A stretch of 64,000 bases of DNA from assembly GCF_030769565.1 (NCBI RefSeq), contig NZ_JAVCAP010000020.1, forward strand, positions 62,001-126,000, given 5' to 3'. Numbering within the stretch: position 1 is the first letter of the stretch; each line of letters opens with the position of its first letter. The position numbers were made by a program, and so were the translations under genes. Below, in pieces: positions 24,299 to 46,892 of this stretch. A model generated the notes under the pieces. It saw only the letters and a program-made list of their open reading frames with translations. It did not search any database and was not told the origin of the DNA. Origin of the DNA: Methylophilus aquaticus. Lineage in GTDB: Bacteria; Pseudomonadota; Gammaproteobacteria; Burkholderiales; Methylophilaceae.

Positions 24299-24643
24299 TC
24301 AGGCTGTCTGTCGTATCACCAGCCCACGTAATTTATCCAGCGTTTTACTGATGGCCAGCACCTCTTCATTGGGAATCTGGCGGAGTACCTTTTGCGTTTC
24401 AGTATCCACCACTTTCACAATGATACGGTCGGTATCATCATCGATAGAAAACTCTATCGTTTGTAGCGCTGGCGCTACATACTCATTTAACTTTTTGACT
24501 GCGCCGCTTAACGCAACTTTGTCATTCACATCAACTGTAGTTTTATCAGAAGATGCCTCGGCATATTTCACCAGCTTCAAACTGCTGGCTGCCTGTATAC
24601 CCTGCAAACTACCACCTACACCAGTTACAGATGAGTCACTCAT
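24299..24643 (-). CDS. flaG: FlaG family protein
   Basis: This 114-residue FlaG has the conserved C-terminal half LQTIEFSIDDDTDRIIVKVVD, followed by QKVLRQIPNEEVLAISKTLD. FlaG proteins influence filament length in several species; the mechanism is poorly defined. The gene follows fliC across a strong hairpin and is preceded by an AAAGGAG ribosome-binding site. Confidence 0.93.
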   Translation of the reverse strand: MSDSSVTGVGGSLQGIQAASSLKLVKYAEASSDKTTVDVNDKVALSGAVKKLNEYVAPALQTIEFSIDDDTDRIIVKVVDTETQKVLRQIPNEEVLAISKTLDKLRGLVIRQTA

Positions 24644-24714: not shown

Positions 24715-25512
24715 TTAACCTCTCAGTAATGTCATCACTTGGTTAGGCAACTGGTTCGCTTGAGCCAGCATCGCAGTACCCGCTTGTTGCAGAATCTGTG
24801 CACGTGTCATCTTGGCAGTTTCTGAAGCGAAGTCTGCATCAGTGATGCGTGACTTGGCAGCAGACATGTTCTCGGAAGCTACGCCCAGGTTGGTGACCAC
24901 TGAAGCAAAACGGTTTTGGTAAGCACCCAATGTCGCACGGTTGGTGTTCACTGTCGTCAATTGTGCATCAATCGCAGTAATCGCATCTGATGCCGCATCA
25001 GCGGTAGACAAGGAACCACTCAATGAAGCCGCTGCCACTGAAGAAACACTGATCGTGTCGCCGCTGTCAGCACCGACCTGGAAGTTATAACCTGAACCGA
25101 AGGCAGCCTGACCGTTAAATTTGGTGGCTGTACTCAAACGAGTCAGCTCATCTTTCAATTGTGTAAATTCTGTATCCAGGTTTGCACGGTCACCAGAGCT
25201 GTAGGAGCCGTTGGCTGCTTGTACAGCCAGTTCACGCATACGTTGTAATGCATCAGTTGCGCTGCTCAAGCCACCTTCTGCAGTTTGCAGGAAAGAGATC
25301 GCGTCGTTTGCGTTACGTGTTGCAACATCCATACCACGCACTTGTGAATCCATACGTGTTGAAATCGCCATACCAGCCGCATCATCTTTGGCGCTGTTGA
25401 TACGCAGACCAGAAGACAAGCGTTGAATCGAAGTATTCAGGCTGCTTTGTGAAGCAGTTAAGTTACGTTGTGCATTCAGGGATGCCAAGTTTGTGTTAAT
25501 TACTGAAGCCAT
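24715..25512 (-). CDS. fliC: Flagellin FliC (short form)
   Basis: This 265-residue filament protein has the conserved D0/D1 ends: N-terminal SLNAQRNLTASQSSLNTSIQ and RLSSGLRINSAKDDAAGMAI, C-terminal ASENMSAAKSRITDADFASE and ATLGAYQNRFASVV. Only about 60-80 residues separate them, so D2/D3 domains are absent. The central stretch is rich in Ser, Ala and Thr (VSSVAAASLSGSLSTADAAS), which could accept O-linked glycans. A sigma-28 promoter lies upstream. It is next to the phosphonate/glycosyltransferase locus. Confidence 0.97.
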   Translation of the reverse strand: MASVINTNLASLNAQRNLTASQSSLNTSIQRLSSGLRINSAKDDAAGMAISTRMDSQVRGMDVATRNANDAISFLQTAEGGLSSATDALQRMRELAVQAANGSYSSGDRANLDTEFTQLKDELTRLSTATKFNGQAAFGSGYNFQVGADSGDTISVSSVAAASLSGSLSTADAASDAITAIDAQLTTVNTNRATLGAYQNRFASVVTNLGVASENMSAAKSRITDADFASETAKMTRAQILQQAGTAMLAQANQLPNQVMTLLRG

Positions 25513-25622: not shown

Positions 25623-25649
25623 TTATCGACCGCTTTGAAAATTTCTTTA
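25623..25649 (-). promoter_or_regulatory. Sigma-28 (FliA) promoter for fliC
   Basis: Read on the - strand, TAAAGAAA (25649-25642), 11 bp, then GTCGATAA (25630-25623) match the FliA consensus with exact spacing. The -35 octamer is identical to that of the flgK promoter. The untranslated leader would be roughly 100 nt. Confidence 0.88.
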
Positions 25650-25986: not shown

Positions 25987-27285
25987 ATGGCATCAGTTTA
26001 TGTAGGGATGACAGTAGACATTCTGCATCACGGCCACATCAACATTATTGAGCAGGCCAGAAAGTATGGTGATGTCACGATAGGCCTGTTATCAGACGCG
26101 GCGGTGGCAGACCACAAGCGCCTGCCCTACCTGACCTATGAACAGCGCAAACACATCGTTGAAAACATTCGCGGCGTGGTTAATGTGGTGACGCAGGAAG
26201 AATGGGACTACGCGCCTAACCTGCTCAAATACAAACCTGACATCATGGTGCATGGTGATGACTGGCTCGAAGGTCCTTTAGTGCCTTACCGTGAGCGCGC
26301 GCGTGCCGCTCTGGCAGAGTATGGCGGCCACCTGATTGAAATCCCCTACACCCGTGGCGTGTCGTCCAACGAAATGCTGGAACAAATCCAGGCGTTGGGC
26401 ACCACGCCGGATATTCGCCGCCGGACGTTGAAACGATTACTGGCAGTCAAACCGATTTCCCGCTTTATTGAAGCGCACAATCCGATCTCGGCCTTGATTG
26501 CCGAACATGTCACGGCCCAGCGCAATGGCAAGACCTGCCAGTTTGATGGCTTCTGGTCGAGCTCACTCACCGACTCTACCGCCCGCGGCAAGCCGGATAT
26601 CGAAGCTGTGGAAATCAACAGCCGCCTGTCGAATATCAATGACATTTTTGATGTCACCACCAAACCTTTAATTATGGATGCCGATACCGGCGGCAAACTG
26701 GAGCATTTTGAACTCAATGTGCGCAGCATGGAGCGCCTGGGCATTTCGGCCACCATCATTGAAGACAAGATCGGCCTGAAAAAGAACTCTTTATTTGGCA
26801 ATGATGTCCCGCAACTGCAAGATGAGATCGAGCCGTTTTGCGAAAAAATCATGGCGGGGCGTGCTGCCCGCGTCAGTGATGACTTTATGGTCATTGCGCG
26901 GATTGAAAGCCTGATCCTGGAAAAAGGCATTGCCGACGCGGTCAAACGCGCACAAGCCTATGTGGGTGCAGGTGTGGACGGCATCATGATCCACAGCCGC
27001 CAGAAAGCACCGGACGAAGTATTTGAGTTTGCCAGGATTTTTAAATCGGAATTTCCAACCACACCGTTAGTCTGCGTACCCACCAGCTATAACAAAGTGA
27101 CTGAAGAAGAACTGGCTGCGCATGGCTTTAACCTGGTTATTTATGCCAACCACATGATGCGTGCCGCTTACCCGGCCATGCAGAATGCAGCGATGGAAAT
27201 CCTGAAAAATGGCCGAACAGCTGAAATCGAATCCAGTTTGATGTCGATTAACGATGTGCTGGAACTGATCCCAGGCACTAAATAA
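25987..27285 (+). CDS. aepX: Phosphoenolpyruvate mutase with N-terminal nucleotidyltransferase domain
   Basis: This 432-residue bifunctional protein has a CTP-transferase-like domain at residues 1-135, with the HHGH nucleotide-binding motif near residue 15 and GVSSNEM near 118. The C-terminal part (about 150-430) is a PEP mutase/isocitrate-lyase fold carrying the diagnostic EDKIGLKKNS motif and the metal-site region MDADTGG. PEP mutase converts phosphoenolpyruvate to phosphonopyruvate, the committed step to C-P compounds. Such fusions are known. A GAAGGAG site sits six bases before the ATG. It is the first gene of a six-gene operon and is divergent from fliC. Confidence 0.93.
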   Translation: MASVYVGMTVDILHHGHINIIEQARKYGDVTIGLLSDAAVADHKRLPYLTYEQRKHIVENIRGVVNVVTQEEWDYAPNLLKYKPDIMVHGDDWLEGPLVPYRERARAALAEYGGHLIEIPYTRGVSSNEMLEQIQALGTTPDIRRRTLKRLLAVKPISRFIEAHNPISALIAEHVTAQRNGKTCQFDGFWSSSLTDSTARGKPDIEAVEINSRLSNINDIFDVTTKPLIMDADTGGKLEHFELNVRSMERLGISATIIEDKIGLKKNSLFGNDVPQLQDEIEPFCEKIMAGRAARVSDDFMVIARIESLILEKGIADAVKRAQAYVGAGVDGIMIHSRQKAPDEVFEFARIFKSEFPTTPLVCVPTSYNKVTEEELAAHGFNLVIYANHMMRAAYPAMQNAAMEILKNGRTAEIESSLMSINDVLELIPGTK

Positions 27286-27298
27286 GCGGAGCGTGAAA

Positions 27299-28474
27299 AT
27301 GATACATGCCGAGGATTTTTTAAACGCATTGCAAACTGAACAGGTACAGTTTTTTGCCGGAGTACCTGATTCATTGTTAAAAGAGCTGTGCGCATGCTTT
27401 TCAGACAAACTGGCCGCAGGCCAGCATGTGATCGCCGCCAATGAAGGCGGCGCCATCGGTCTGGCGATTGGCCATTACCTGGCCACACACCACCCTGCCC
27501 TGGTGTATATGCAGAATTCTGGCATCGGCAATGTCGTCAACCCGATTGCGTCACTGGCGGATCCGCAGGTGTATGGTATTCCGATGTTATTGGTGATCGG
27601 CTGGCGTGGTGAAGTCGCTGAAAATGGCGAACAGATCCATGATGAGCCGCAGCATGTCAAACAAGGTCAGGTGACTTTATCTCAGCTCGATGTGCTGGAT
27701 ATCCCTTATCGAATCCTGGCTGATGACATTCAAACCGCACATGCACAAATTCAAGCATTATTAACCCAGGCAACTGAGCGACAAGGTCCGGTTGCCCTGG
27801 TGGTACGCAAGCAGCGCTTTGCACCCTACAAAAAAGCCGAAACCAAGCCTGAACCCTTAGCTACACTGGCAGAAAAATTGCCAACGCTGGAAAGCCGCGA
27901 GCATATGATCCAGCATATCGTCAGCGCATTACCCGCAGAAACTGCAGTAGTTGCAACCACCGGCATGGCTTCCCGCGAATTATTTGAATATCGTAAAGCC
28001 CAACAAGCCGGGCATGGCCGAGATTTTCTGACGGTCGGTGGCATGGGACATGCCTCACAGATTGCCTGCGGCATTGCCCTCGCCCAGCGTGACAGACAAG
28101 TCGTATGTATTGACGGCGACGGTGCCATGCTGATGCATATGGGCAGCCTGACCATCAGTGCCCAGCAAACCAACCTGCTACATATTGTATTGAATAACGG
28201 CGCCCATGACTCGGTCGGTGGCCAACCGACCGTAGCGGCACAACTGACATTGTCCGAGATTGCCAGTGCTGCCGGTTATGCGCAGGTCTACAGTGTTTCC
28301 GGCCCTGAACAATTGGGTCGCGTATTGCAAAATGTGCTGAACAGCGGCAAAAGCAGTTTTATTGAAGTCCTGTGCCGCAAAGGCGCGCGCGCAGACCTGG
28401 GTCGTCCGACACGAACGCCGGCCCAGAACAAACAAGACTTCATGCAGTTTTTGACCGAGGTGGAATATGCCTGA
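27299..28474 (+). CDS. aepY: Phosphonopyruvate decarboxylase
   Basis: This approximately 391-residue thiamine-diphosphate enzyme pulls the PEP mutase reaction forward by decarboxylating phosphonopyruvate to phosphonoacetaldehyde. It has the N-terminal FFAGVPDSLLKELC motif, the MQNSGIGNVVNPIASL loop, and the ThDP/Mg motif GDGAMLMHMGSL through LNNGAHDSVGGQ typical of this family. I prefer the ATG at 27299, which has GGAG at 27288-27291; an in-frame GTG at 27293 is too close to that site. It overlaps aepZ by 8 bp. Confidence 0.94.
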   Translation: MIHAEDFLNALQTEQVQFFAGVPDSLLKELCACFSDKLAAGQHVIAANEGGAIGLAIGHYLATHHPALVYMQNSGIGNVVNPIASLADPQVYGIPMLLVIGWRGEVAENGEQIHDEPQHVKQGQVTLSQLDVLDIPYRILADDIQTAHAQIQALLTQATERQGPVALVVRKQRFAPYKKAETKPEPLATLAEKLPTLESREHMIQHIVSALPAETAVVATTGMASRELFEYRKAQQAGHGRDFLTVGGMGHASQIACGIALAQRDRQVVCIDGDGAMLMHMGSLTISAQQTNLLHIVLNNGAHDSVGGQPTVAAQLTLSEIASAAGYAQVYSVSGPEQLGRVLQNVLNSGKSSFIEVLCRKGARADLGRPTRTPAQNKQDFMQFLTEVEYA

Positions 28475-29456
28475 GATCAGCGTGCACACCCATGTCGCGT
28501 CGCAAAATGCGCGCAAAGTGCTGTTTACTGCTGGCCCGGCCAGTCTGCTGGATGAAAACTTGCTTGGCCTGCGGCCCTGTTTTGGTCGGGGTGACCAGGA
28601 TTACAGCCAGGTTGAAGAGGCTGTCCTGACTACCTTGAAAGCCATGACGGGACACGCCCATATTGCGCGACTGCAAGGCTCGGCCAGTCTGGCGCTGGAA
28701 ATCGCCAGCCTGAACTTTTTAAACGGCAAGGTGCTGGTGATAGACAGCGGCTACTATGCCCAGCGACTGAGCAGCTTTGCACAAATGGCACAACGCACTG
28801 CGGGCGAAGTGTCATCAGTCGCCGTCTGCGACTGGCAACAACTGGCGAGCGTGCAAGAGCCTTATGACTGGGTGGTGGCCTGCTATACCGAAACCAGTGC
28901 TGGCCTGTTGTTACCAGTGGCTGAATTACGCGCACTGGCTGACCGTGTCGGCGCCCAGTTGATGCTGGATGCCACCGCTTCGATCGGCCTCGAAATCGAT
29001 CATGGCCTGGCGGATGTGATTGCCTACAGTTCCTGCAAAGGCCTGTTTGGCCTGACAGGTGCCTCTTTTATTGCTTTTCACCAGCCGCCCAAACATGAAG
29101 TGGATTCATTTTACCTGAACCTGGCCACGCACCTTGAGCGCCGTATGACCGGCCCTTATCACGCCATTGCTTCTTTGTATGAAGTCTTGCCCAAGCACGC
29201 TGACTTGCGCGAAGCCGTGTTTATCAACAAAGCCCGCATGCTGAAAAAGATTGCGGGCTATGCCACCCATCCGGCGCATTACCAACCCGCTTTATGCACC
29301 TGGGTAGACGCCCAAGTGACCAGCCAGGACGCACGTGCTGTGCTGTATCAACCGCGCGGCATCAGCCGTGGCAGCGTTGTGTGCCATTTGGGCGAAGCAC
29401 ATTTGGGCAGCCAGGCCCGCGGTGATATTCTTGATTTACTGGAGCTACAGCCATGA
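28467..29456 (+). CDS. aepZ: 2-Aminoethylphosphonate aminotransferase
   Basis: This 329-residue class V aminotransferase has LFTAGPASL at the N-terminus, DATASIGLEID (the PLP-ring Asp) and SSCKGLFGLTG with the likely Schiff-base Lys. Together with AepX and AepY it should form 2-aminoethylphosphonate from phosphonoacetaldehyde. It is a little shorter than PhnW-type enzymes (about 360-370). It overlaps aepY by 8 bp and the next gene by 4 bp (ATGA), so translation is coupled. A different amino acceptor is possible. Confidence 0.88.
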   Translation: MPEISVHTHVASQNARKVLFTAGPASLLDENLLGLRPCFGRGDQDYSQVEEAVLTTLKAMTGHAHIARLQGSASLALEIASLNFLNGKVLVIDSGYYAQRLSSFAQMAQRTAGEVSSVAVCDWQQLASVQEPYDWVVACYTETSAGLLLPVAELRALADRVGAQLMLDATASIGLEIDHGLADVIAYSSCKGLFGLTGASFIAFHQPPKHEVDSFYLNLATHLERRMTGPYHAIASLYEVLPKHADLREAVFINKARMLKKIAGYATHPAHYQPALCTWVDAQVTSQDARAVLYQPRGISRGSVVCHLGEAHLGSQARGDILDLLELQP

Positions 29457-29866
29457 CGCACTCCCAAAAACGGATTATGGTCGATATGTCAGCCACGCTG
29501 ATCCACCACGGTCATGTACGCCTGTTAAAGGCAGCCAAACAACTGGGCCATGTCGTGGTCGCCCTGACCACTGATGCAGAAATCCGCGCCAAGAAAGGCT
29601 ATGAGCCGGAGCTGGACTATGCCGCCCGTGCCGAAGTGTTACTGGCCATGCGCGATGTTGATGAAGTGGTGCCCAGCCCCTGGCTGCTTGACGAAGCCTT
29701 TTTACAACAACACAAGATCGATGTGCTGGTCCACGGCCATGACAACAGCAACCCGATTGCTGCAGATAAACTACATCTCCTGCCGCGCACGGAAGGCATC
29801 AGCAGCACGATGCTGCGCGCCCGTGTACTCAAGGCAGTCAGTCAAAAAATGGAAGCGAACACATGA
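29453..29866 (+). CDS. HxGH nucleotidyltransferase (predicted phosphonate CTP transferase)
   Basis: This 137-residue single-domain CTP-transferase-like protein has HHGH at about residues 18-21 and the C-terminal EGISSTMLR motif, similar in layout to glycerol-3-phosphate cytidylyltransferase. It is a second nucleotidyltransferase in an operon that already has one fused to AepX, but the two sequences differ clearly. I infer that one activates 2-aminoethylphosphonate as a CMP ester; which one, and what the other does, cannot be told from sequence. Overlaps of 4 bp occur on both sides. Confidence 0.82.
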   Translation: MTHSQKRIMVDMSATLIHHGHVRLLKAAKQLGHVVVALTTDAEIRAKKGYEPELDYAARAEVLLAMRDVDEVVPSPWLLDEAFLQQHKIDVLVHGHDNSNPIAADKLHLLPRTEGISSTMLRARVLKAVSQKMEANT

Positions 29867-30561
29867 GTAATATTTGGCAACAGATTTGGGAAAAACGCAG
29901 TCTGCAACCGCAACATCCCATAACCCTGGAAACATTGATTGCACTGGATGGTTTTGACAGTGGCGCGGGCAAAATCAACCCGGCAGACTGGCAGGAATAT
30001 ACCCGCCGCATCAGTGACAAGCTTGCGCTGAAGTCAGGACACTCAGTATTTGAGGTTGGCTGTGGCGCAGGCGCATTTTTATATGCCTTGCGACAGCAGC
30101 ATACCCTCACCGTGGGCGGGCTGGATTATGCTGCCGGACTGATTGAAGCCGCGCAACAGGCCATGCCGGATGGAGACTTTAAAGCACAGCCTGCGCAATC
30201 CATGGCCACCGATACCCGATATGATTTTGTCATCGCCAACAGCGTGTTTCATTATTTTGATGAAGCCATGGCCACCCAGGTGTTCCAGGCCATGTGGCAA
30301 AAAGCCAACATTGGCGTGGCCATTCTGGATATTCCGCACGCAGCCACCAAAGAAGCCTGCGAACGCGCCCGGCGCGAGGCGCTGAGTGAGGCTGAGTATG
30401 AAGAAAAATACCGTGGCCTGCACCACACCTATTACACTCCTGAGTGGTTCAGCCAGCAACTGCCGGACAAACCGCATCAGGCATTTGAAAGCTGCGTGCC
30501 CAATTATGCACAAAGCCAATATCGCTTCAGTGTCATTTTTTCCAAACGCTTGCATGGATAG
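29863..30561 (+). CDS. SAM-dependent methyltransferase (possible phosphonate or glycan methylase)
   Basis: This 232-residue class I methyltransferase has motif I as FEVGCGAGAFLYAL (about 64-77), followed by GLDYAAGLIEAA and YDFVIANSVFHYFD. It starts within the stop of the nucleotidyltransferase gene (ATGA), so it belongs to the same operon. The substrate is unknown; N-methylation of 2-aminoethylphosphonate or methylation of a linked sugar would suit the context. Confidence 0.8.
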   Translation: MSNIWQQIWEKRSLQPQHPITLETLIALDGFDSGAGKINPADWQEYTRRISDKLALKSGHSVFEVGCGAGAFLYALRQQHTLTVGGLDYAAGLIEAAQQAMPDGDFKAQPAQSMATDTRYDFVIANSVFHYFDEAMATQVFQAMWQKANIGVAILDIPHAATKEACERARREALSEAEYEEKYRGLHHTYYTPEWFSQQLPDKPHQAFESCVPNYAQSQYRFSVIFSKRLHG

Positions 30562-30567
30562 ACCATC

Positions 30568-31959
30568 ATGACGACAACTACATCACACCAGCCTGTGTTC
30601 ACTTTTTTTTATACCGACAACTGCGAACGCCAGGCACTGGCACCGGTTGCCGATGAAATTGCCAGCAGAGGCTACCCGATTCAATGGAGCACTGACTCCA
30701 GACAATATGCTGAAGTCGGCGTGTACTGCGAGCATGCTTGCAAACCCAATGCCGGATTTTCAGTGATTCTGCTGCACGATCTGGCGCAGCGCCATGATAT
30801 CTGGCCGCACTTCTGGCATCATGAACCTTGGAGCGCGTTTGATATGGGCATTGTGCCCGGCCCGGCCTGGGTAGAGCGCTGGCAAACACAAGCCAATTTC
30901 AAACAGGCACAGCCCAAACTCGGCATGTTTGACCTGGGTTGGCCCAAGGCTGACCTGGTCTACCGCAACCAGGAAACCTTTAAACAGGAAGCACAAAAGC
31001 TGCGCGAGCAACTGGGGTTGAAGTATGAACACTCGATTTTGTATGCGCCATCGTGGGAAAACCATGGCAAGCAGGATGAATTTGTACAGAGCCTGAAAGA
31101 CTTGCCAGTCAATTTACTGTTAAAGCAGGCCCCGTGGTCAGATAAATATCGCTGGGTACTGAATAATATCGACGAAATGGATGCCCTGCACAGAAACTGC
31201 GCAGACAATGTCTATGTGGTTGATCGCGAAATCAGCATCATGTATTGCCTGGGCCTGGCCGATGTCATGGTGTCGGATGAATCCAGCGTCCTGACCGAGG
31301 CCTTGTTGCTGGATGTGCCTGGCATTGCGGTGACCGACTGGCTGATCCCGGATACCAATCCACCACGCCCGGCCAGCGTGCCTTATGACTATGTGATCAA
31401 AACAGTCAAAGCGGATTTACGCCGGACCGTAGAAGATGTATTGAAAAACGCGGCCGTTTATCAGCAACAGATCACGCAAAACAAGCAGCACCAGTTTGCC
31501 CATCTGGGGCAAAGTGCCACCTTGATTACGGATAATATTCTCGCCGCCCTGGCGGGTGAAACCGCCTTGCCCACACCCGCGATCAAATCCCAGGTTGAGA
31601 TTGACCGCAATACCTATCACTATGCCGAAAAACTGGCCGCCGAAGGCGATATGAAATTGTCTACCCAGGTCATGCTGGAGCTGATTAAAAAAGAAAGTTG
31701 CTGCTGGGAGCCCTACAACGACCTTGGCACTTTACTGGTGAGCCAGGGCCAGTTTGAAGATGCCGAACTGCTGCTGGAAAAAGCGGTGCTGCTAGCACAG
31801 GAGAATCCGGCGATCCCGCTCAGCAACCTGACAGAAGTGTATTGTCTGCAACAAAAGGCCGACAAAGCTCTGCTCACATTGGCCAAACTCAGCAAGTACA
31901 CGCCCAACCCTGGCGGCTCGATTCCGCATATACGCCGTTGCATGGAAACCATGTTTTAA
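30568..31959 (+). CDS. CDP-glycerol glycerophosphotransferase-like transferase with C-terminal TPR
   Basis: This 463-residue protein resembles the TagB/TagF/CDP-alcohol phosphotransferase fold: residues 1-335 include SILYAPSWENHGK and SDESSVLTEALLLDVPGIAV, which matches the conserved SDYSS-type block. Residues ~350-463 form TPR-like helices (DLGTLLVSQGQFEDAELLLE). Enzymes of this fold transfer alcohol-phosphate from CDP or CMP donors to acceptors. Here I infer transfer of the CMP-activated phosphonate to a glycan, the TPR tail perhaps docking the protein acceptor or the giant glycosyltransferase. It is the last operon gene, followed by strong hairpins. Confidence 0.8.
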   Translation: MTTTTSHQPVFTFFYTDNCERQALAPVADEIASRGYPIQWSTDSRQYAEVGVYCEHACKPNAGFSVILLHDLAQRHDIWPHFWHHEPWSAFDMGIVPGPAWVERWQTQANFKQAQPKLGMFDLGWPKADLVYRNQETFKQEAQKLREQLGLKYEHSILYAPSWENHGKQDEFVQSLKDLPVNLLLKQAPWSDKYRWVLNNIDEMDALHRNCADNVYVVDREISIMYCLGLADVMVSDESSVLTEALLLDVPGIAVTDWLIPDTNPPRPASVPYDYVIKTVKADLRRTVEDVLKNAAVYQQQITQNKQHQFAHLGQSATLITDNILAALAGETALPTPAIKSQVEIDRNTYHYAEKLAAEGDMKLSTQVMLELIKKESCCWEPYNDLGTLLVSQGQFEDAELLLEKAVLLAQENPAIPLSNLTEVYCLQQKADKALLTLAKLSKYTPNPGGSIPHIRRCMETMF

Positions 31960-32086: not shown

Positions 32087-35000
32087 TTAGGTAAACAGTT
32101 GGCGCACAGGCAGCACCGCCCGCGTAAACTCGGCTGTCAGGCTGTTCACCACATGTTCAGGTGCACCCTGCGTCATATTCTGCAAACGGTTAAACACGCT
32201 GATAAAGGCCTGCAACTGATCGTCCCGGTAATAATAGCCATTGAGTTCAAGTGCAGCCAGGGTCAGGCTGCCAATATTGGCAGGCGTGCTGGCATGCGGT
32301 TTGCCGCAACTGCGTACGCGATGCAGCGTGAGGAATAAACCTCGCAAGGCGACAAAGGCCACTGGCAAAGGGATGGCAAAGTCCCACTCCAGATCAAAGA
32401 AATGTCCCTGCCCGGCCTTGTCCATCACAAAGTTGGTCGGAGTGGCATCAAAATACTGGGAAGGCAACAAGGCAGAATAGCCAGCAAATTCCGGCAAGGT
32501 TTTGCCGCCGGTTTGTGCCGCAGCTTCCAGGCCCTGTAACCACGGGGCTGCCCAAGCTGCCAGTTCTTCCACACGCCAGCCAGGGCGATTCATCAGCTGG
32601 GTCAGCTTATCCATCCATAGCTGGCCGCCATGATAAGGCGCATGCTCCCAGTCGGCTTGCAACAGTTGTGCGGTTTCGCCGGTATTGCGTGTACGCGTCA
32701 CCAGGCCTTCCGCCGCGTTGATAAACTGGGTTTCCTTACTGAACACGGCCTGGCGCTGACAACCATAATGCGCTGCCAATACATCCGGATGCAATTTGCC
32801 TGATTGACGCTGTGGATAAGCCACAAACATAAACGAATTAGCAACATCTTCGACCAGATTATTGCGCGCAATCACCTGCCAGGCGTTTTCCAGTGAAAAG
32901 GTTGGGTGACGTGGCGATTGCCTGTCGTGTACCACAGAGCCAGCCGCTATTGCACCGACATCCCAGCCAGCCGCACGATGCGCCTGATTAAAGCCTTCAG
33001 GGTAAATCACGCTGACCGGGGTTTTGTAGTCTGGCAATGGCACATAGAGTTCTGTTGTTTCAAAGCCCACACTACGGATCAATGCATCCAGTTCAACACG
33101 GCCAAAGGTAATCGGGCTGCTGTTGCTGTAAGAGTCATTGATGCCATACATGGCTTGTCCCATATGATCTTCAGGCGCGCCGCAGAAATATTTAAGTCCC
33201 AGCTGATTCTCAATCGCGACAATCAGCATGCCATCTTCCTTGAGAAAAGACTTGGCCACTTGCAGCAAATAGCGCAGAGGATCAGCTTCTTTGACATAGA
33301 CCTGCGCGTATTCAAGCACACCGATCAGGGTCACCACATCAAATTTTTCGTCAGTTTCAAACGCCTGGATCAGGTCAGAATAAATCGTCACATTCTTGAG
33401 ATCAGCACAACGCTGGCCAATCACGCGCGCACGGTTCGGGCTGCCTTCGAGCGCCACCACTTCACCGCCCAATTCACCCAGAAAGCGGGTAATGGCACCA
33501 CAACCCGCGCCCAGTTCGAGCACTTTGCCTGCGGCGATTTTATCGGCAAACGGACGCAGCAGATTGGCGCGTTGCGAGGTCAAGTGATAATAACTTGGCC
33601 AGTCAGTGGCTTTGGCGGCCAGCTCACTCGAAAACACACTCTTGTCGCGTGACTGGCGAATCATGTCGTACAAACGCTGTTCGGCATTGCCTACATCCTG
33701 ATACCCAAACGCCTCGCTCTGGGCACGCTGGTAAAAGTTGTCTTCAGCGCGATAAATATAAGCACCCTTGGTGACGACCGCAGCGCTTGCGCCAGACACA
33801 ACTGCTGCTGGCTGGCCATATTGCTGTTGCAATGCATCTGCCTCCGCGGCAGCCAGGCCATTTTGGCGGGCAAAGGTAATCACATCCAGCACTTCGCTGT
33901 GCGGGGCTGTCAGCGCCAACACCTGAATATAAGCTTGCCAGTAGGCGGCTTGCTTGGGTGACAGAATCACTGCCTGTTCCAGGAGCGGCAGGACTTCTTC
34001 GGTTTTGCCTGCTTGTTGTGCCAGCAGGCCCAACTGGAAATAAGTCGCTGCATGCTTGGCATCAATTCGCAAAATTTCCTGATAAAACTGCATGGCCTGG
34101 ACAAAGTCGCCTTTTTCCTGCATTTTTAGCGCGAGCTGAAATACTTCGGCAATCGAGTCTTGCAGTGCGTTCGCCGGTGCAGCTTGGGGGTTAAGTGTTG
34201 TGTTCATAGAGATACCTTTATCAGTGGGTTCAGTCACGACGGCCGCAACAGAAGGTGCTTGCAGGGTTAAAGAAGGAATAGCAAAGCTGGTTGCAGTTTG
34301 GCCCTGACACCAGCGCTGCCACATCTGGCGCATCGCTTGTGATAAGGCCTGTGCCAGTGGGCTTGCTTGTACCAGCGGGGATTGGGCAAAACGTGTGCGT
34401 AAACTGGCACGTAATTCGGCCAGCCCTTGCAGATCAGCCAAGGCGAGCTGCGCCTGTTGTTCATATTGCTGTGGATTGACAGCGATAAATGCATCTAAAC
34501 CGAGATGCTGCATGAGCGCCATGGCACCACGGCTGGCCAGGCGATCACCCGCGACACATAGCGTGGGGACGCCCATCCACAAGGCGTGCGCCGTGGTGGT
34601 CACGCCGTTAGACGGGAAGGTATCCAGGCACACATCGACCAGGTGATATTGCTGCAAATAGCCCAGCATATCGGTGCGTGCATAAAACGATAAGCGGTCT
34701 GTGCTCACGCCTGCTTCGGCAAACCATTGTTGCAAATGCGCATTGCCTGCTGTTTCAGCCATGCCGCCCAGTACCATGCGGCTGCCGGGGTTGGCCTGCA
34801 TCACAGCCGCCCATTGCTGCACGGTTGCCTGCGTAATTTTATTGGGCCGGTTAAAGCAGCCAAAAGTAAGATAGCCATTCGTCAGCGCGGGTAAAGCATT
34901 GACCTCGGGGGCCTGCGGGTGGGCCACAAACGGCGCATTCACCGGCAACTGCACAATCTGCTCGGTAAACTGTTGATCAAACCGGCCCGGCGGCAGCAAA

Positions 35001-38000
35001 GCGCTGTCAGCCAGGTAATAGTCGATCGCGCGCAAGCCGGTGGTATTCAGATACCCTAACCAGCTGGCCTGTACCGGTGCCGGTTTTCTGGCAAAAGTCA
35101 GCAAGCGATTCCCTGACGTATGGCCAGATAAATCAATCAGAATATCAATCTCATCCTGTCTGATCGTCCCAGCCAGCGCGTCGTCAGACATGCTTGAAAC
35201 CACACGCCATTGTTTGAAATACTGGCGCATCTCGGCAGTGACTTCGTCTTCCAGAGTGTAATTGGCATAAGCGAACAGGACCAGTGATGCATCTTGCGCC
35301 AGCGCAGGCAGCAAAGGCAGCAGGAAATGCGCTACCGAGTGTGCGCGCAGGTCAGCAGACACAAAGCCGACACGGAGCGGACGCTGTGCGTCGCGTGTAT
35401 TGCTGTGTGACTGCCACTGCTCTTTTAACGGGGCTTCATACAGCGCTGCATACGCAGTGTGAGCTTCAAACAGGGCATGATGATCAATATGTTCGGCATG
35501 CGTCATGCAAAACAGCAAATTGCTAAAACAATCGGCATACTGCGGCTGTAATAACAAGGCCTGCTTAAACTGCTTGATTGCTTCGTCCACCGCACCCAGG
35601 TCTTTGAGCACAATACCCAGATTGTTATAGGCCGCTGCATAGTCAGGCTTAAGCTGGATGGCATTTCTGAAAGCTTCAGCCGCTGCGACCAGATCACTCT
35701 GGGCCTTGAGTGCCAGACCGTAATAGCAATGCTCTTCAGCACTGAGCTGATTCAGTGCCAGTGCTTTGCTGGCCGCTGCGCGCGCATCCTTTTTTTGTAT
35801 CATCAATACGTCAGACAGCATTTTCCAGCCACTCAACCAGGCTGGATATTGCTGCAATAGCGTGTGCAATTCGCTTTCCATTTGCGCATATTGCTGCGCT
35901 TCAAATAACGCCAGCAAGGCCTGCTGTATTGCATCAGACGGCTGTACAGCGGTCGTTTGCACTGGTAACTGCCAGTCCTGCATCAACGTTTGCAAGGCCT
36001 GTGTATGCTGGCCGCCATTCATCGCCTGCGCCAATACTTGCTCCAGTTCGGCTGTGGCACCACTGTTTTTGAGTGCCGTCAGATAGCTGCTTAACAACTG
36101 CCACTGACTTGGGGCCAGCGCATACGCCGCTGCCAGCAAGCGCAAGGCCTCTGTTGGCTGTTGGCTGTGCCAGTAAATCAAGCCCAGATTATGCGTGGCA
36201 AGGGCATGCTGGGCATCCACCGCCAGAATCTCTTGGTAAAGCTGTGTCGCCGTCGCAAAGTCACCTTGCTGCTGCGCACGTGAGGCCAGGTCAAATACTT
36301 CGGCCATGGCTGCCTGCATCGCAGGAGACGTAGACTGTTGTACTGGCGTTGCCTCCCATTTTTGGTGGTAGTGCAGATAAGTTTCACGCCAGCGGGCACT
36401 GCCAAAAGCGCCACCACTTTGATGCGTCATCCGTACTGGCCATACGCCTAGTTTCAACCCGGCACGCGTCGCCGTACGGCAAAAATCCAGGTCATAAAAA
36501 TGGAACTCAAACTGTGGGTCAAAACGCACACTGCTTTGCAGCAGGGTCTGCTTGTGTGCCGCCAGAAACACGCCATCCATGAGCTGGCATTCGCCTGACA
36601 CATCGCCATAACTGGAAGCGGGCCCAAACGCATGTTGACCATGGCTGACTGCACCTCTCAGGTATTTGGCATCATCCCAGGTAAATTGCAGGTCAACAAA
36701 GCACCAGCCGGGCTGACCAGCTTGCAGCCGGGCATTTCCCGCAATGCCGATCACATCATAGTGCGTCAATCCATTCTCTAGGGTGTGTACAAAGGTATTC
36801 TCATCCAGCCACACGTCATCATGAATCATGACGAGCAAAGCATCGTCCGGGGCAGCGGCAATAGCCTCGTTAAACACCTCAGACAGGCCGCGTGTATTCT
36901 CATACGCCACCACGGGGCGCAGGCGTGCATCCTGCTGCATGTGACGCTTGAGTGAACGCCCCAGGGCAGATTCGCGCCAGAAAGCTTCTTCTGTCATGCG
37001 TGTGGCGCTCACCACCCACACTGGCTGTGCTCCGGTAAAAGCAGCTTGTACCGGAACCTGTGCCAATAACTGCTCAGCCTGCAAACAGGCGAGTTTTTGT
37101 TGCCACAACTGAAACAGTAATTGCTCAAAACCTTGTGCAAACAGCTCGGCGTTCATTAATGGTGATGCCAGCACTTGTGGCCGCAATTGGGCACGCAATG
37201 CTGCCAGCGCCTCCAAATCACTGCTCAGCGCAATCGCCTTGCTTACATACGCGTCACGCGAAGTGGCCACCCAATCCTGCAAGCCTACACAATGCAAAAA
37301 GCTGGCCCCCTGGCGGGCAATCAGTGACTCGCCCAGTAAGGTGACTGTCGGCACACCCATCCAGAGCGCCTCGCAAGTCGTCGTGCCACCGGTAAACGGG
37401 AATGTATCCAGAATCACATCAATCTGGTGATGGTTACGCAAGTATTGTTCGCGCGGGGCCATGCCAGTCAATGTGCATCTGGCAGCCGAGATGCCGTATT
37501 GCGCTAATCTGGCCAATGCCTGTTCACGCATGCGTCCGTCATTAAATGCCTTGGTTTGCCAGAATAACCTGGCTGTTGGTAACCCTTGCAAAACCTCGCC
37601 CCAGCAGGACAACACATCATCGCTGACCTTGCTGTAGTTCTGGAAACAACCAAAGGTAATGGCCCCTGTGTGCAAGGCAGGTAATGCATTGACAGCCACA
37701 TCATTCGACGGCGCCGTGAAACACATGCGTGTATGCGGCAGGTGCACCACCTGCTCAGTAAATTGCGTTGCGCCCTGCGCATCAATGCTCACCGGGTCTG
37801 CAATCACGTAATCCATCACCGGTAAACCGGTGGTGCCCCAATAGCCTAACCAGGTGGCTTGCACCGGCGCGGGTTTGTGCGCAAAAATGGGTAACCGTGT
37901 GCCTCCAGACAAGCCAGACAAATCCAGCAGAATGTGGATACCATCTTCGCGAATCTGCTTGGCTGCCTGTGCATCGGTCAACCCGGCCAGTGAACGCCAC

Positions 38001-39592
38001 TGGTTGCATAAGTCTTTCAGTTCGTGCGAAAACGCGTCTTCGCGACCATCGGTCGAGTAGCCATACACTTCCAGACGGCTGGCATCAAAGGCTTGTAACC
38101 ATTGATGCAGGAAATACGCCACCGGGTGTGTACGCAAATCGGCAGAGACCAGACCAATGCGGAGTCGTTGTTCTTGTGCATGCACCTGCCAGCTATCATA
38201 GGGCGTCACGCCAGCCATCATGGCTGCACCCAAGCGATGGGCATAAGTCAGGCTTTCACTGACTGGCAAGGTATTGCTGTAGCTATTGGCAAACAGCAGG
38301 TTTCTGAGCGCCATCATGTGTGTGGGCTCAATTTCCAACGCTTTTTTCAAGGTGTCAATTGCCGTGCTCACCTGCCCCATATCCAGATATACATTGGCAA
38401 GATTGATATAGCCAGCCATAAAGTCAGGCTTGATCTGCAAGGCCTTTTCCAAGCAGGCAATTGATTCACTAAAGCGACCCAGCATGCGTAAGCTGATACT
38501 GTAATTGCTCAAGACACTTTCAGAATCCGGCAACTGCTGCAAAGCCGTTTCGAAACGCTGGCAGGCTTTGTCATAGCTATTTCTGGCATTTTCAACCAGC
38601 CCCAGATTTGCTTGTATATAAGGGTTATCGGGGTCTGCTTCCAGCGCTTTCAGGCAATAGCTTTCCGCCTCGCCATACAACTGCTGGTTAAGCATTTCGG
38701 TAGCCAGGTTATTCAGTGCTTCGGGGCTAAAATCCTGCACCTGCATGATCTGATCTAAACACGCTTGATAGTCTCTGGTACGATGCGTCACTCGATAGAG
38801 CCGGGCCAGGTTTTTCAGCAGTGACAGCTCGGCCGGACTCAACGCCATCCCAGCCAACAGCCATTGTTCTGCTTCTTCCACATCGCCGTGCTGTAGATAC
38901 AAGCCACCCAGATGGCTGTATGCCTCAACGTAGTCCTTTTGAAGCGTAATCACCTGTTCATAAGTCGCTATTGCTTCCGAGGTATTGCCCAGTTGCTCCA
39001 GCGCCACGGCCATATTAAAAAAGATCACAGCGTTTGCAGGTTCAATCGCCACCGCTTCACGGTAATATTGCATGGCTTCTAAAGGTTTATCTGCCTCATG
39101 CAACAAGGTCGCCAGTTCAAAATTGACACGACCATCCTGCTGGTGAATATTCAAGCCACGTCGCAATAACTTCTCGGCTTCTTTTAACTGGCCGGTTTGC
39201 TTGAGCACGCTGGCCCAGTTGGCATAGGTCAGGCTAAATGCAGGATTTAACTTCAGTGTCTGACGGTAATATTTAATGGCCTGGGGATATTCCTGCAATT
39301 GCGCATGGACATTGGCCAGGTTATACAGCACCTCGGCATCTTTTTTCAGCGCTTTGCTTGCCTGCAAAAACGCCTCGGCAGCTTCTACCAGACGCTCCTG
39401 CTGCTGATAAAGGCTGCCCAATAACTTCCAGGCCAGGCCCTCTTCAGGAAACGTACGCGTGATCTTTTGCGCCCATTCAAGACAGGCTGGCCATTCACCA
39501 GCCTGCCAGTGCGCGATCAATTGCTGCATCCACTGCTGGCATTCAGTGTCATGAGCAGTCTTGCGATGAGCGCGCGCGGCAGAATGTTGCAT
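32087..39592 (-). CDS. Giant TPR / double SPINDLY-type (GT41) glycosyltransferase with GT2-like and methyltransferase modules
   Basis: This is a 2501-residue protein. In order: TPR repeats (~25-450); first OGT/SPINDLY-type GT41 module (~475-830) with DLRTHPVAYFL, PAPVQATWLGY and DTFPFTGGTTTCEALWMGVPT; a GT2-like module (~845-1075) with MIHDDVWLDENTF and FYDLDFCRTATRAG; more TPRs (~1090-1390); second GT41 module (~1405-1765) with DLRAHSVAHFL, PAPVQASWLGY and DTFPSNGVTTTAHALWMGVPT; TPRs (~1795-1900); a SAM-methyltransferase module (~2015-2150) with VLELGAGCGAITRFLG; and an uncharacterised C-terminal region. GT41 enzymes glycosylate Ser/Thr of proteins. Its place beside fliC and the phosphonate operon suggests flagellin or surface-protein modification. 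No signal peptide is seen, so it should be cytoplasmic. Confidence 0.9.
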   Translation of the reverse strand: MQHSAARAHRKTAHDTECQQWMQQLIAHWQAGEWPACLEWAQKITRTFPEEGLAWKLLGSLYQQQERLVEAAEAFLQASKALKKDAEVLYNLANVHAQLQEYPQAIKYYRQTLKLNPAFSLTYANWASVLKQTGQLKEAEKLLRRGLNIHQQDGRVNFELATLLHEADKPLEAMQYYREAVAIEPANAVIFFNMAVALEQLGNTSEAIATYEQVITLQKDYVEAYSHLGGLYLQHGDVEEAEQWLLAGMALSPAELSLLKNLARLYRVTHRTRDYQACLDQIMQVQDFSPEALNNLATEMLNQQLYGEAESYCLKALEADPDNPYIQANLGLVENARNSYDKACQRFETALQQLPDSESVLSNYSISLRMLGRFSESIACLEKALQIKPDFMAGYINLANVYLDMGQVSTAIDTLKKALEIEPTHMMALRNLLFANSYSNTLPVSESLTYAHRLGAAMMAGVTPYDSWQVHAQEQRLRIGLVSADLRTHPVAYFLHQWLQAFDASRLEVYGYSTDGREDAFSHELKDLCNQWRSLAGLTDAQAAKQIREDGIHILLDLSGLSGGTRLPIFAHKPAPVQATWLGYWGTTGLPVMDYVIADPVSIDAQGATQFTEQVVHLPHTRMCFTAPSNDVAVNALPALHTGAITFGCFQNYSKVSDDVLSCWGEVLQGLPTARLFWQTKAFNDGRMREQALARLAQYGISAARCTLTGMAPREQYLRNHHQIDVILDTFPFTGGTTTCEALWMGVPTVTLLGESLIARQGASFLHCVGLQDWVATSRDAYVSKAIALSSDLEALAALRAQLRPQVLASPLMNAELFAQGFEQLLFQLWQQKLACLQAEQLLAQVPVQAAFTGAQPVWVVSATRMTEEAFWRESALGRSLKRHMQQDARLRPVVAYENTRGLSEVFNEAIAAAPDDALLVMIHDDVWLDENTFVHTLENGLTHYDVIGIAGNARLQAGQPGWCFVDLQFTWDDAKYLRGAVSHGQHAFGPASSYGDVSGECQLMDGVFLAAHKQTLLQSSVRFDPQFEFHFYDLDFCRTATRAGLKLGVWPVRMTHQSGGAFGSARWRETYLHYHQKWEATPVQQSTSPAMQAAMAEVFDLASRAQQQGDFATATQLYQEILAVDAQHALATHNLGLIYWHSQQPTEALRLLAAAYALAPSQWQLLSSYLTALKNSGATAELEQVLAQAMNGGQHTQALQTLMQDWQLPVQTTAVQPSDAIQQALLALFEAQQYAQMESELHTLLQQYPAWLSGWKMLSDVLMIQKKDARAAASKALALNQLSAEEHCYYGLALKAQSDLVAAAEAFRNAIQLKPDYAAAYNNLGIVLKDLGAVDEAIKQFKQALLLQPQYADCFSNLLFCMTHAEHIDHHALFEAHTAYAALYEAPLKEQWQSHSNTRDAQRPLRVGFVSADLRAHSVAHFLLPLLPALAQDASLVLFAYANYTLEDEVTAEMRQYFKQWRVVSSMSDDALAGTIRQDEIDILIDLSGHTSGNRLLTFARKPAPVQASWLGYLNTTGLRAIDYYLADSALLPPGRFDQQFTEQIVQLPVNAPFVAHPQAPEVNALPALTNGYLTFGCFNRPNKITQATVQQWAAVMQANPGSRMVLGGMAETAGNAHLQQWFAEAGVSTDRLSFYARTDMLGYLQQYHLVDVCLDTFPSNGVTTTAHALWMGVPTLCVAGDRLASRGAMALMQHLGLDAFIAVNPQQYEQQAQLALADLQGLAELRASLRTRFAQSPLVQASPLAQALSQAMRQMWQRWCQGQTATSFAIPSLTLQAPSVAAVVTEPTDKGISMNTTLNPQAAPANALQDSIAEVFQLALKMQEKGDFVQAMQFYQEILRIDAKHAATYFQLGLLAQQAGKTEEVLPLLEQAVILSPKQAAYWQAYIQVLALTAPHSEVLDVITFARQNGLAAAEADALQQQYGQPAAVVSGASAAVVTKGAYIYRAEDNFYQRAQSEAFGYQDVGNAEQRLYDMIRQSRDKSVFSSELAAKATDWPSYYHLTSQRANLLRPFADKIAAGKVLELGAGCGAITRFLGELGGEVVALEGSPNRARVIGQRCADLKNVTIYSDLIQAFETDEKFDVVTLIGVLEYAQVYVKEADPLRYLLQVAKSFLKEDGMLIVAIENQLGLKYFCGAPEDHMGQAMYGINDSYSNSSPITFGRVELDALIRSVGFETTELYVPLPDYKTPVSVIYPEGFNQAHRAAGWDVGAIAAGSVVHDRQSPRHPTFSLENAWQVIARNNLVEDVANSFMFVAYPQRQSGKLHPDVLAAHYGCQRQAVFSKETQFINAAEGLVTRTRNTGETAQLLQADWEHAPYHGGQLWMDKLTQLMNRPGWRVEELAAWAAPWLQGLEAAAQTGGKTLPEFAGYSALLPSQYFDATPTNFVMDKAGQGHFFDLEWDFAIPLPVAFVALRGLFLTLHRVRSCGKPHASTPANIGSLTLAALELNGYYYRDDQLQAFISVFNRLQNMTQGAPEHVVNSLTAEFTRAVLPVRQLFT

Positions 39593-45319: not shown

Positions 45320-45330
45320 ATGTTCGAAAT

Positions 45331-45490
45331 TTTCAGTTTTATCGACACATCTTTATCATATGTCGATGCTATCGACACGTCAACCACTTGTGTCGATATT
45401 TTTCAGTTTTATCGACACATCTTTGGTGTATGTCGATGCTAACGACACATCAGCGACTTGTGTCGATAAAATTCACTATCATCGACATAA
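45331..45490. repeat. 70-bp tandem repeats carrying alternating TCGACA/TGTCGA motifs
   Basis: Two 70-bp units (45331-45400 and 45401-45470) and the start of a third (45471-45490) follow directly. Each unit holds TCGACA and TGTCGA in alternation: TCGACA at 45342, 45372, 45412 and 45482; TGTCGA at 45361, 45391, 45431 and 45461; one degenerate copy at 45442. Spacings run 19, 11, 19, 21, near helical periodicity. The array lies just upstream of fic and looks like a multi-site operator. Confidence 0.85.
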
Positions 45491-45513
45491 GCATTTAAAC
45501 TAAAAAGTCACCA

Positions 45514-45591
45514 CAACGTGTATAAAAAAACGCATTCTCTTATCACGTTGCGCTGGATATGTTCAAAAAAACGTGTTTTTGATACACGTTG
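45514..45591. promoter_or_regulatory. Second inverted motif set (CAACGTG / CACGTTG)
   Basis: CAACGTG at 45514-45520, CACGTTG at 45544-45550 and CACGTTG at 45585-45591, with AACGTGTAT and ATACACGTT as the outermost longer arms. They lie between the end of the nucleotidyltransferase gene and the 70-bp array. They may be a hairpin that ends the upstream transcript or further regulator sites. Confidence 0.4.
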
Positions 45592-45607
45592 CTACTACAC
45601 CGCGCAA

Positions 45608-46878: not shown

Positions 46879-46892
46879 AAAACCACCTTATA

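What the first reader, a model, noticed from the sequence alone, without database searches (positions are those of the whole stretch)
25987..31959. Complete phosphonate synthesis-activation-transfer operon directly behind flagellin
Six tightly coupled genes (overlaps of 4-8 bp between most) encode PEP mutase, phosphonopyruvate decarboxylase, AEP transaminase, two HxGH nucleotidyltransferases, a methyltransferase and a TagF-like transferase. The first three give 2-aminoethylphosphonate by established chemistry. The rest fit CMP activation, methylation and transfer to an acceptor. The divergent neighbour is fliC and the convergent neighbour is a giant protein O-glycosyltransferase, so the likely product is a phosphonate-decorated flagellar (or other surface) glycan. 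I am not aware of a described phosphonate-modified flagellin.
Basis: partly seen in the sequence, partly recalled or inferred. Interest (0 to 1): 0.88.

Follow-up and report, generated by a model that had tools for sequence, protein, structure and literature searches.

The report
Phosphonate-decorating cassette beside flagellin genes
Next to the flagellin gene of a methanol-using bacterium sits a gene set for making an unusual carbon-phosphorus compound and, most likely, attaching it to the flagellum; relatives carry rearranged versions near flagellin genes, which makes a rarely seen flagellum modification genetically testable.

Summary
The six-gene operon is real (25987-31959, +, a Methylophilus genome): NTase-PEP mutase fusion, phosphonopyruvate decarboxylase, divergent class V aminotransferase, second HxGH nucleotidyltransferase, methyltransferase, TagF-like transferase. 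Evidence goes beyond adjacency. All 11 of 22 sampled Methylophilus genomes that have the fusion carry it 474-511 bp from fliC. Three Methylotenera and one Dechloromonas genome have the cassette in other gene orders on the fliC contig. A Burkholderiales genome of another family (G1182) keeps homologous methyltransferase, TagF-like protein and C-module beside fliC but has different front enzymes; its free nucleotidyltransferase matches the proven AEP cytidylyltransferase PntC. Three cassette-free Methylophilus genomes carry other tailoring genes and a GT41 giant beside fliC. Best reading: CMP-activated, probably N-methylated 2-aminoethylphosphonate is transferred to flagellin glycan. Acceptor and chemistry are inferred. 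New is a candidate dedicated genetic system. Main counter-evidence: the TagF-like/C-module pair also sits in a polysaccharide-type cluster of a genome without detected flagellin.

The parts
25987..27285 (+). Fusion protein, 432 aa: N-terminal HxGH nucleotidyltransferase domain (about residues 1-137) and C-terminal PEP mutase (148-432)
   Evidence: PF01467 and PF13714/TIGR02320 above cut-off; EDKIGLKKNS and HHGH motifs
27293..28474 (+). Phosphonopyruvate decarboxylase (Ppd), 393 aa
   Evidence: TIGR03297 475.7 bits, cut-off 312.5
28467..29456 (+). Divergent class V aminotransferase, probable AEP-forming transaminase, 329 aa
   Evidence: PF00266 just above cut-off; TIGR03301 77.4 bits, below cut-off 360.8; best PDB match 7e7g, AEP transaminase, E 7e-14; SSCKG stretch read by eye as the PLP lysine
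29453..29866 (+). Stand-alone HxGH nucleotidyltransferase (NT2), 137 aa, probable CTP:AEP-type cytidylyltransferase
   Evidence: PF01467; HHGH and RTEGISST kept; same position as a PntC-like enzyme in G1182
29863..30561 (+). SAM methyltransferase, 232 aa, probably N-methylates AEP or CMP-AEP (inferred)
   Evidence: PF13649; homologues in flagellar and non-flagellar cassettes
30568..31959 (+). TagF-like transferase with C-terminal TPR, 463 aa, candidate phosphonate transferase
   Evidence: PF04464 29.9 bits over cut-off 22.1; profile aligns to TagF-like polymerase Cps3D 8qoy, 1.9e-10
33764..39592 (-). Giant protein residues 1-1943: TPR and GT41 regions with a GT2-like domain; candidate flagellin O-glycosyltransferase
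   Evidence: PF13844, E 8e-105, 4 stretches; PF13712 in residues 850-1100; largely retained in cassette-free G014 and G011
32087..33763 (-). Giant protein residues 1944-2501, here called the C-module: SAM methyltransferase plus a domain without Pfam match
   Evidence: Separate protein in Methylotenera; start of a larger protein in Dechloromonas; fused behind TagF-like domain in G1182; beside TagF-like gene in G172; in 13 of 22 Methylophilus genomes
24715..25512 (-). fliC flagellin, 265 aa, divergent neighbour, proposed acceptor
   Evidence: Flagellin_N and Flagellin_C
25623..25649 (-). FliA (sigma-28)-like promoter of fliC
   Evidence: 12 of 16 match to a recalled consensus; CGATAA and TTAAAGAAATTT parts unchanged in 8 aligned Methylophilus intergenic regions
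24299..24643 (-). flaG of the flagellar cluster
   Evidence: PF03646 78.9 bits
22598..24265 (-). fliD of the flagellar cluster
   Evidence: PF07195 180.9 and PF02465 90.4 bits

Best explanation
The operon is the tailoring cassette of a flagellin-modification island. Proposed route: PEP mutase makes phosphonopyruvate; Ppd decarboxylates it to phosphonoacetaldehyde; the aminotransferase makes 2-aminoethylphosphonate (AEP); an HxGH nucleotidyltransferase, most likely the stand-alone one, activates it as CMP-AEP; the small methyltransferase N-methylates AEP or CMP-AEP; the TagF-like enzyme, of a family that elsewhere moves phosphate-linked units from CDP donors, transfers the phosphonate to a sugar that the GT41 giant has put on flagellin before export; the giant's C-module adds a further methyl group and perhaps a phosphate. 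Shown here: gene content, conservation, linkage and co-occurrence. From established enzymology of families whose cut-offs are passed: the first two steps. Inferred: AEP as product, CMP activation, N-methylation, transfer and the flagellin acceptor.
For: PEP mutase and Ppd pass curated cut-offs; PEP mutase signature present. 11 of 11 fusion-positive Methylophilus genomes have fliC next door. Different gene order in Methylotenera L040 and L041 (GT41 protein, cassette, C-module, fliC, flaG, fliD on one strand) and Dechloromonas (cassette, 1754-aa C-module-glycosyltransferase protein, fliC 160 bp on). G1182: PepM-MobA fusion, Ppd, aminotransferase, MobA-type NTase, methyltransferase, TagF-C-module fusion, fliC; its NTase matches 6pd1 (Tde1415, an AEP-preferring PntC, PMC6697681) at 3.9e-44. 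Outside Methylophilus, 2 of 9 pepM- and flagellin-positive genomes from a 399-genome order sample have pepM within 12 kb of a flagellin gene; rough post hoc chance estimate P = 0.005. TagF-like profile: 3 of 399, two of them Methylophilus, all pepM-positive and fliC-linked. C-module in 13 of 22 Methylophilus genomes: the 11 fusion-positive plus G007 and G018, 0 of 9 others. Cassette-free G014, G021 and G011 have other genes and a GT41 giant beside fliC.
Against: No chemical data. G172 pairs the TagF-like gene and C-module with flippase and GDP-mannose-type genes, has two pepM genes cut by contig ends and no detected flagellin. Pelagibacter L050 and L051 have 29-30% identical TagF relatives and no flagellin. 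Close front cassettes L044, L045, L078 and L080 are in genomes without detected flagellin; L078 and L080 continue with a CDP-alcohol phosphatidyltransferase. The aminotransferase misses the AEP-transaminase cut-off. In L084 the cassette has decayed while GT41 protein and C-module remain. In L042 fliC is about 22 kb from the end of the C-module gene. No conserved FliA promoter before the operon. Most pepM genomes of the order sample with flagellin, 7 of 9, are not fliC-linked; Rhodobacteraceae L049 has flagellin but none in its flanks.
Confidence: 0.68

Rival explanations
1. The same chemistry decorates another surface glycan (O-antigen, capsule, exopolysaccharide); the place beside fliC is a general glycan island.
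For: G172: TagF-like and C-module genes next to a flippase and GDP-mannose-type genes, PepM present, no flagellin detected. AEP-modified capsule of B. fragilis is mentioned in PMC8861647.
Against: Of 18 window proteins searched (operon, giant, fliC; ten neighbours) none is a flippase, polymerase or lipid-carrier enzyme; the rest of the window was not searched. The adjacent giant is of the GT41 family, and rearranged versions stay near fliC.
Confidence: 0.18
2. The phosphonate ends as a phosphonolipid, or as a free or secreted small molecule.
For: L078 and L080 have close front cassettes followed by a CDP-alcohol phosphatidyltransferase, so such donors may feed lipids.
Against: No CDP-alcohol phosphatidyltransferase, exporter or resistance gene among the six operon genes; the operon ends in a TagF-like transferase.
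Confidence: 0.07
3. The TagF-like enzyme transfers an ordinary CDP-linked group such as glycerol phosphate, made by the TagD-like NT2; the phosphonate genes serve something else.
For: NT2's best NCBIfam match is glycerol-3-phosphate cytidylyltransferase, 61.2 bits; TagF family name.
Against: NT2 is far below that family's cut-off of 165.4. In G1182 its place is taken by a PntC/LicC-type NTase. All 3 TagF-profile genomes of 399 also carry pepM.
Confidence: 0.05
4. The cassette is a decaying passenger without present function.
For: In-frame TAG in the fusion gene of M. rhizosphaerae (L038, G017); internal loss in Methylotenera L084.
Against: The ten other Methylophilus copies are open at 92-100% identity; motifs are kept in the seven of them shown.
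Confidence: 0.02

Closest known systems
Clostridioides difficile type A flagellin modification (cd0240-cd0244), including its 2-AEP variant
   Same: Same logic: sugar put on flagellin by a glycosyltransferase, then a phosphorus-linked amino compound, a methyltransferase, cluster at the flagellar locus; 2-AEP, in small amount, was seen on the GlcNAc (PMC8861647).
   Different: Main group there is phospho-N-methylthreonine; that paper reports no pepM in C. difficile and an unknown AEP source. No HAD-type gene in the operon here. C. difficile sequences were not at hand, so homology to CD0242-CD0244 was not tested.
Pnt phosphonyl-tailoring pathways with CMP-AEP (Treponema denticola, Atopobium rimae, Olsenella uli; PMC6697681)
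   Same: PepM, often fused to a nucleotidyltransferase, then AEP production, cytidylyltransferase and surface-glycan genes (passages).
   Different: The two characterised PntCs are PF12804; the window has two PF01467 domains. 'flagell' does not occur in its text.
Proposed marine phosphonylated glycoproteins of Prochlorococcus and SAR11 (PMC8931226)
   Same: Phosphonate proposed on protein-linked glycan; two Pelagibacterales loci fetched here (L050, L051) have distant TagF-like relatives.
   Different: Transfer there is proposed through lipid carrier and O-oligosaccharyltransferase (passages); no bacterial flagella in the passages.
Enterobacterial flagellin glycosylation islands with GT41/SPINDLY enzymes (PMC4875605)
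   Same: Variable tailoring genes with GT41 enzymes in flagellin islands (passage).
   Different: 'phosphon' does not occur in that paper's text.
Fom1, fused cytidylyltransferase-PEP mutase of fosfomycin biosynthesis (described in PMC6697681)
   Same: Fusion of a PF01467 domain to PEP mutase.
   Different: Acts on hydroxyethylphosphonate for an antibiotic; resembles G1191's Fe-ADH version more than the window.

Membership tests
PEP mutase | EDKXXXXXNS motif and curated score cut-off | tested here: met
   EDKIGLKKNS; TIGR02320 412.7 over 319.55
Phosphonopyruvate decarboxylase | curated score cut-off TIGR03297 | tested here: met
   475.7 over 312.5
2-aminoethylphosphonate transaminase (PhnW/AepZ) | curated score cut-off TIGR03301 | tested here: not met
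   77.4 under 360.8; still the best NCBIfam match, and best PDB match is an AEP transaminase. Called AEP-forming by context only.
PntC, CTP:AEP cytidylyltransferase | PF12804 fold family | tested here: not met
   Both window NTases are PF01467; the G1182 counterpart is PF12804 and matches 6pd1. The window enzyme may work like PntC without being one.
PntC, CTP:AEP cytidylyltransferase | AEP cytidylylation activity | not testable with these tools
   needs assay
TagF-type glycerophosphotransferase family (PF04464) | Pfam gathering score | tested here: met
   29.9 over 22.1, matched stretch residues 119-254 of 463; donor and acceptor untested
C. difficile type A flagellin modification | glycosyltransferase and tailoring genes at fliC | tested here: met
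C. difficile type A flagellin modification | HAD-type phosphatase gene (CD0241; the HAD label is recalled) | tested here: not met
   none of the six operon genes matches a HAD family
C. difficile type A flagellin modification | homology to CD0242, CD0243, CD0244 | not tested
Flagellin glycosylation island | glycosyltransferase genes beside fliC, variable between strains | tested here: met
   GT41 giant; other contents in cassette-free strains
WbdD-like methyltransferase-kinase (considered for the C-module; architecture recalled) | sequence match to solved WbdD or a kinase family | tested here: not met
   no such match in PDB searches, no Pfam match of the C-terminal part at E 5; kinase-like pattern is by eye

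The most novel reading that the evidence does not exclude
Flagellin phosphonylation is a recurrent, modular trait of Burkholderiales: a TagF-like enzyme family works as flagellin phosphonyltransferase, fed by interchangeable front ends (HxGH-type AEP, PntC-type AEP, or hydroxyethylphosphonate sets), and the phosphonate cassette is one of several exchangeable tailoring options beside fliC, perhaps against phages, grazers or glycosidases.
Probability: 0.45. Interest if true: 0.82.

Novelty: new variant of a known kind. Interest (0 to 1): 0.7.

Why it matters
In 2022 2-AEP was found on C. difficile flagellin with no known origin (PMC8861647), and the abstract of PMC6697681 calls the phosphonyl-tailoring steps after C-P bond formation enigmatic. 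Methylophilus methylotrophus DSM 46235 (L036), to my knowledge a harmless methanol utiliser, has the whole set in one operon beside fliC, so synthesis, activation, transfer and effect on motility could be tested by single deletions. If true it links phosphonate metabolism to flagella and offers a candidate phosphonate transferase.

Tried and rejected
Chance adjacency: rejected through 11 of 11 conservation and other gene orders. Mobile cassette on plasmids: no TagF-like match in 72,556 plasmid records at E 1e-5. FliA promoter for the operon: a weak candidate at about 25899 (11 of 16) is not conserved in the aligned intergenic regions, so co-regulation is unproven. FliC signature of modified strains: an alignment of 11 flagellins shows no clear Ser/Thr difference by eye and none has a long central domain. 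WbdD membership of the C-module: no sequence support. C. difficile homology test: attempted through a 391-genome sample of the class of L052 (a Tissierellia bacterium); only weak TagF-profile matches, some in the TPR part; the nine stretches then fetched were not analysed further. L085 Anaerovibrio has LicD, methyltransferase, HAD and MobA-type NTase genes close together, resembling type A parts; flagellin genes were found in its genome but whether one lies near L085 was not worked out. Literature on Methylophilus with phosphonate or flagellin: 5 and 9 papers listed, none on this subject by title and start of abstract.

Four of the nine remaining belong to one family (f212) and two to another (f5), so they are not independent; one of the nine (G1043) is below the PEP mutase cut-off.

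Of the 9 Methylophilus genomes without cassette genes or C-module, several are incomplete (G001 88%, G006 88%, G019 82%), G006's fliC region was not fetched, and G015 showed only a 145-aa weak GT41 match.


Full report
WHAT IS THERE. The window comes from a Methylophilus genome (G000, 2.96 Mb; its nearest named relatives are Methylophilus spp.). Six ORFs lie head to tail on + from 25987 to 31959, with 3 of 5 junctions overlapping by 4 to 8 nt and two gaps of 6 and 7 nt. Pfam and NCBIfam give an NTase-PEP mutase fusion, Ppd, a class V aminotransferase, an HxGH NTase, a SAM methyltransferase and a PF04464 transferase with TPR. The flagellin gene is divergent, followed by flaG, fliD and fliS, and a 2501-aa TPR/GT41 protein is convergent. 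PEP mutase and Ppd pass curated cut-offs; the aminotransferase does not pass the AEP transaminase cut-off (77.4 vs 360.8) and is called by context and by its best solved relative, an AEP transaminase.

DISTRIBUTION. The fusion protein at 92-100% identity is in 11 of 22 Methylophilus genomes and in 0 of 39 other genomes sampled from the family and order (best there 73.7 bits). In all 11, fliC lies 474-511 bp away (from positions). A scan of named genomes gave 53 loci; a FliC match lay within the fetched flanks (up to 10 kb, shorter at contig ends) in 9 of 53. Eleven of 53 carry the close TagF-like gene (over 500 bits): seven Methylophilus, three Methylotenera, one Dechloromonas. Nine of these 11 are the nine with FliC in the flank; the other two have a flagellin gene on the same contig: L042 about 22 kb from the end of its C-module gene, L043 about 5.5 kb from the end of its TagF-like gene.

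GENE ORDER DIFFERS, CONTENT STAYS. Methylophilus: fliC divergent, giant convergent. Methylotenera L040 and L041: 1223-1274-aa GT41 protein, cassette, 559-aa C-module protein, fliC, flaG, fliD on one strand (L040 with one further gene, without Pfam match, before fliC). Dechloromonas: cassette, 1754-aa protein of C-module plus GT2-type domains, fliC, flaG, fliD. These arrangements argue that linkage is kept by function and not only by shared descent.

THE C-MODULE. Residues 1944-2501 of the giant are a methyltransferase plus a domain without Pfam match. They are a separate protein in Methylotenera (57-58% identity), the start of the 1754-aa protein in Dechloromonas (33-35%), fused behind the TagF-like domain in G1182 (37%) and the neighbour of a TagF-like gene in G172 (28-30%). 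Within Methylophilus it is in 13 of 22 genomes: the 11 with the fusion plus G007 and G018, fragmented assemblies with an NT2-like match. In G007 the contig starts inside the aminotransferase gene and runs NT2, methyltransferase, TagF-like, C-module; G018's order was not checked. None of the other 9 has it, some of them incomplete genomes. In G014 the giant's residues 19-1927 are kept at 54% identity with a different end; G011 keeps 19-1765 at 46%. In 7 of 7 compared modules the second domain shows D-x4-N followed by D-x-E, the second D 13 residues after the N in the window and 12 in L043 (spacing counted by eye). This recalls protein-kinase catalytic loops, a lead only, since PDB and Pfam searches gave no kinase match.

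AN INDEPENDENT VERSION WITH A PROVEN ENZYME TYPE. In a 399-genome sample of the order, 14 have PEP mutase by TIGR02320 at E 1e-60, 13 of them over cut-off. I examined the 12 outside Methylophilus for flagellin: 9 have it, and 2 of those 9 have pepM within 12 kb of a flagellin gene, G1182 and G1191; 7 do not. In G1182 the order is PepM-MobA NTase fusion, Ppd, aminotransferase, free MobA-type NTase, methyltransferase (49% identical to the window's), TagF-C-module fusion that continues into glycosyltransferase domains (58% in the TagF part), fliC, flaG, fliD, fliS. The free NTase matches 6pd1 with E 3.9e-44; 6PD1/6PD2 are Tde1415 of Treponema denticola, active with AEP and hardly with phosphocholine, 6PD2 with CMP-AEP bound (PMC6697681, passages). 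The window's TagD-like NT2 stands in the same place. This replacement of one NTase kind by another is the best evidence that the donor is CMP-AEP. G1191 has NTase-PepM, Ppd, an iron-dependent alcohol dehydrogenase, a TagF-type protein (PF04464, 162 bits) and GT2 proteins between two flagellin genes; by analogy with fosfomycin-type pathways its product would be hydroxyethylphosphonate (inference).

IS THE LINK MORE THAN CHANCE? A rough calculation gives P = 0.005 for 2 or more of 9 outside the genus, and 0.0002 for 3 or more of 10 when Methylophilus is counted once (limit chosen after seeing the data, see Tried and rejected). The TagF-like profile matched 3 of 399 order genomes, all pepM-positive and fliC-linked, two of them Methylophilus, and 2 of 369 class genomes: the window's own and G172.

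A SWAP SLOT. In cassette-free G014 and G021 the fliC side carries three flagellin genes with DegT aminotransferase, FdtA and 2OG-oxygenase genes; G014 also a formyltransferase-ankyrin protein, G021 acetyltransferase, methyltransferase, aldo-keto reductase and PhyH genes; then a GT41 protein. G011 has a GT41 giant and a TOD1/MUCI70-type glycosyltransferase-like protein beside fliC. G012, G016, G019 and G001 have no GT41 match in the fetched stretch, G015 only a weak one, G006 was not fetched. So the phosphonate cassette looks like one choice among several flagellin tailoring sets.

AGAINST. G172, same class, has a TagF-like gene (50% identity) and C-module next to a flippase, GDP-mannose dehydratase and mannose-1-phosphate guanylyltransferase-type genes, two PepM genes cut by contig ends (below cut-off, probably for that reason; EDK motif present), and no flagellin found. 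This pair therefore can serve a polysaccharide. Front cassettes of L044, L045, L078 and L080 are in genomes without detected flagellin; L045 and L078 have the methyltransferase; L078 and L080 continue with a CDP-alcohol phosphatidyltransferase. From this I infer that the small methyltransferase acts on the shared small molecule and that the last transferase sets the target. In Methylotenera L084 the cassette is reduced to fragments while C-module and GT41 genes are open, and its genome has no PepM over cut-off, so the C-module may have a role without phosphonate. M. rhizosphaerae L038 has an in-frame TAG between the two domains of the fusion gene.

MECHANISM. See best explanation. Open: which of the two NTases activates AEP. 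The fused domain keeps HxGH but has YT where NT2 has RT in the later signature, in all 18 HxGH fusions printed; NT2 keeps RTEGISST.

LITERATURE. Six searches bear on phosphonate with flagella or flagellin or on Methylophilus; listings seen. PMC8861647 (abstract, passages, discussion) reports 2-AEP, in small amount, on the GlcNAc of C. difficile type A flagellin and leaves the source open. PMC4441256 (passages) describes cd0241-cd0244 and says orthologues of three of them were clustered at a flagellar locus only in P. aeruginosa PAO1. PMC8931226 (passages) proposes phosphonylated surface glycoproteins in marine bacteria. PMC4875605 (term search) has no 'phosphon'. PMC12645811 (passages) mentions phosphonate moieties on flagellin glycans. 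I found no paper on a pepM cassette at a flagellin locus in these searches; most subscription journals are not held.

VERDICT. Observation confirmed; interpretation partly supported and strengthened; novelty reduced by the 2022 report, but a dedicated, recurrent genetic system would be new. Interest 0.7.

Noticed in passing
L160 / L161 (G1191:C1:3047000-3072000): PEP mutase, Ppd, iron-dependent alcohol dehydrogenase and a TagF-type protein lie between two flagellin genes, suggesting a hydroxyethylphosphonate version of flagellin tailoring.
   Followed up: partly
L084:10001-12571 (Methylotenera D1-2020): Remnant of the cassette: a match to the first 41 residues of the fusion protein, a 100-aa NTase-like ORF and a 131-aa TagF-like ORF between open GT41 and C-module genes.
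   Followed up: partly
L038:9947-11299 (Methylophilus rhizosphaerae): In-frame TAG between NTase and PEP mutase domains of the fusion gene; it could separate the two domains into two proteins or mark decay.
   Followed up: no
L085:4920-11266 (Anaerovibrio lipolyticus): TibC-like glycosyltransferase, LicD, methyltransferase, HAD hydrolase, MobA-type NTase and HxGH NTase genes close together, reminiscent of C. difficile type A genes but with LicD.
   Followed up: no
L114:8455-11285 (G172): TagF-like and C-module pair in a polysaccharide-type cluster of a genome without detected flagellin; two further contigs end inside PEP mutase genes (L169, L170).
   Followed up: partly
window 41853-49647 (-): Type I restriction-modification locus (HsdR-like, HsdS, HsdM by Pfam) with a Fic-domain protein (44195-45319) and two proteins without Pfam match (45608-46878) between its genes.
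   Followed up: partly
window 32384-32455 (giant residues about 2380-2403): Kinase-like pattern D-x4-N then D-x-E in the unknown domain of the C-module, present in 7 of 7 compared modules.
   Followed up: partly
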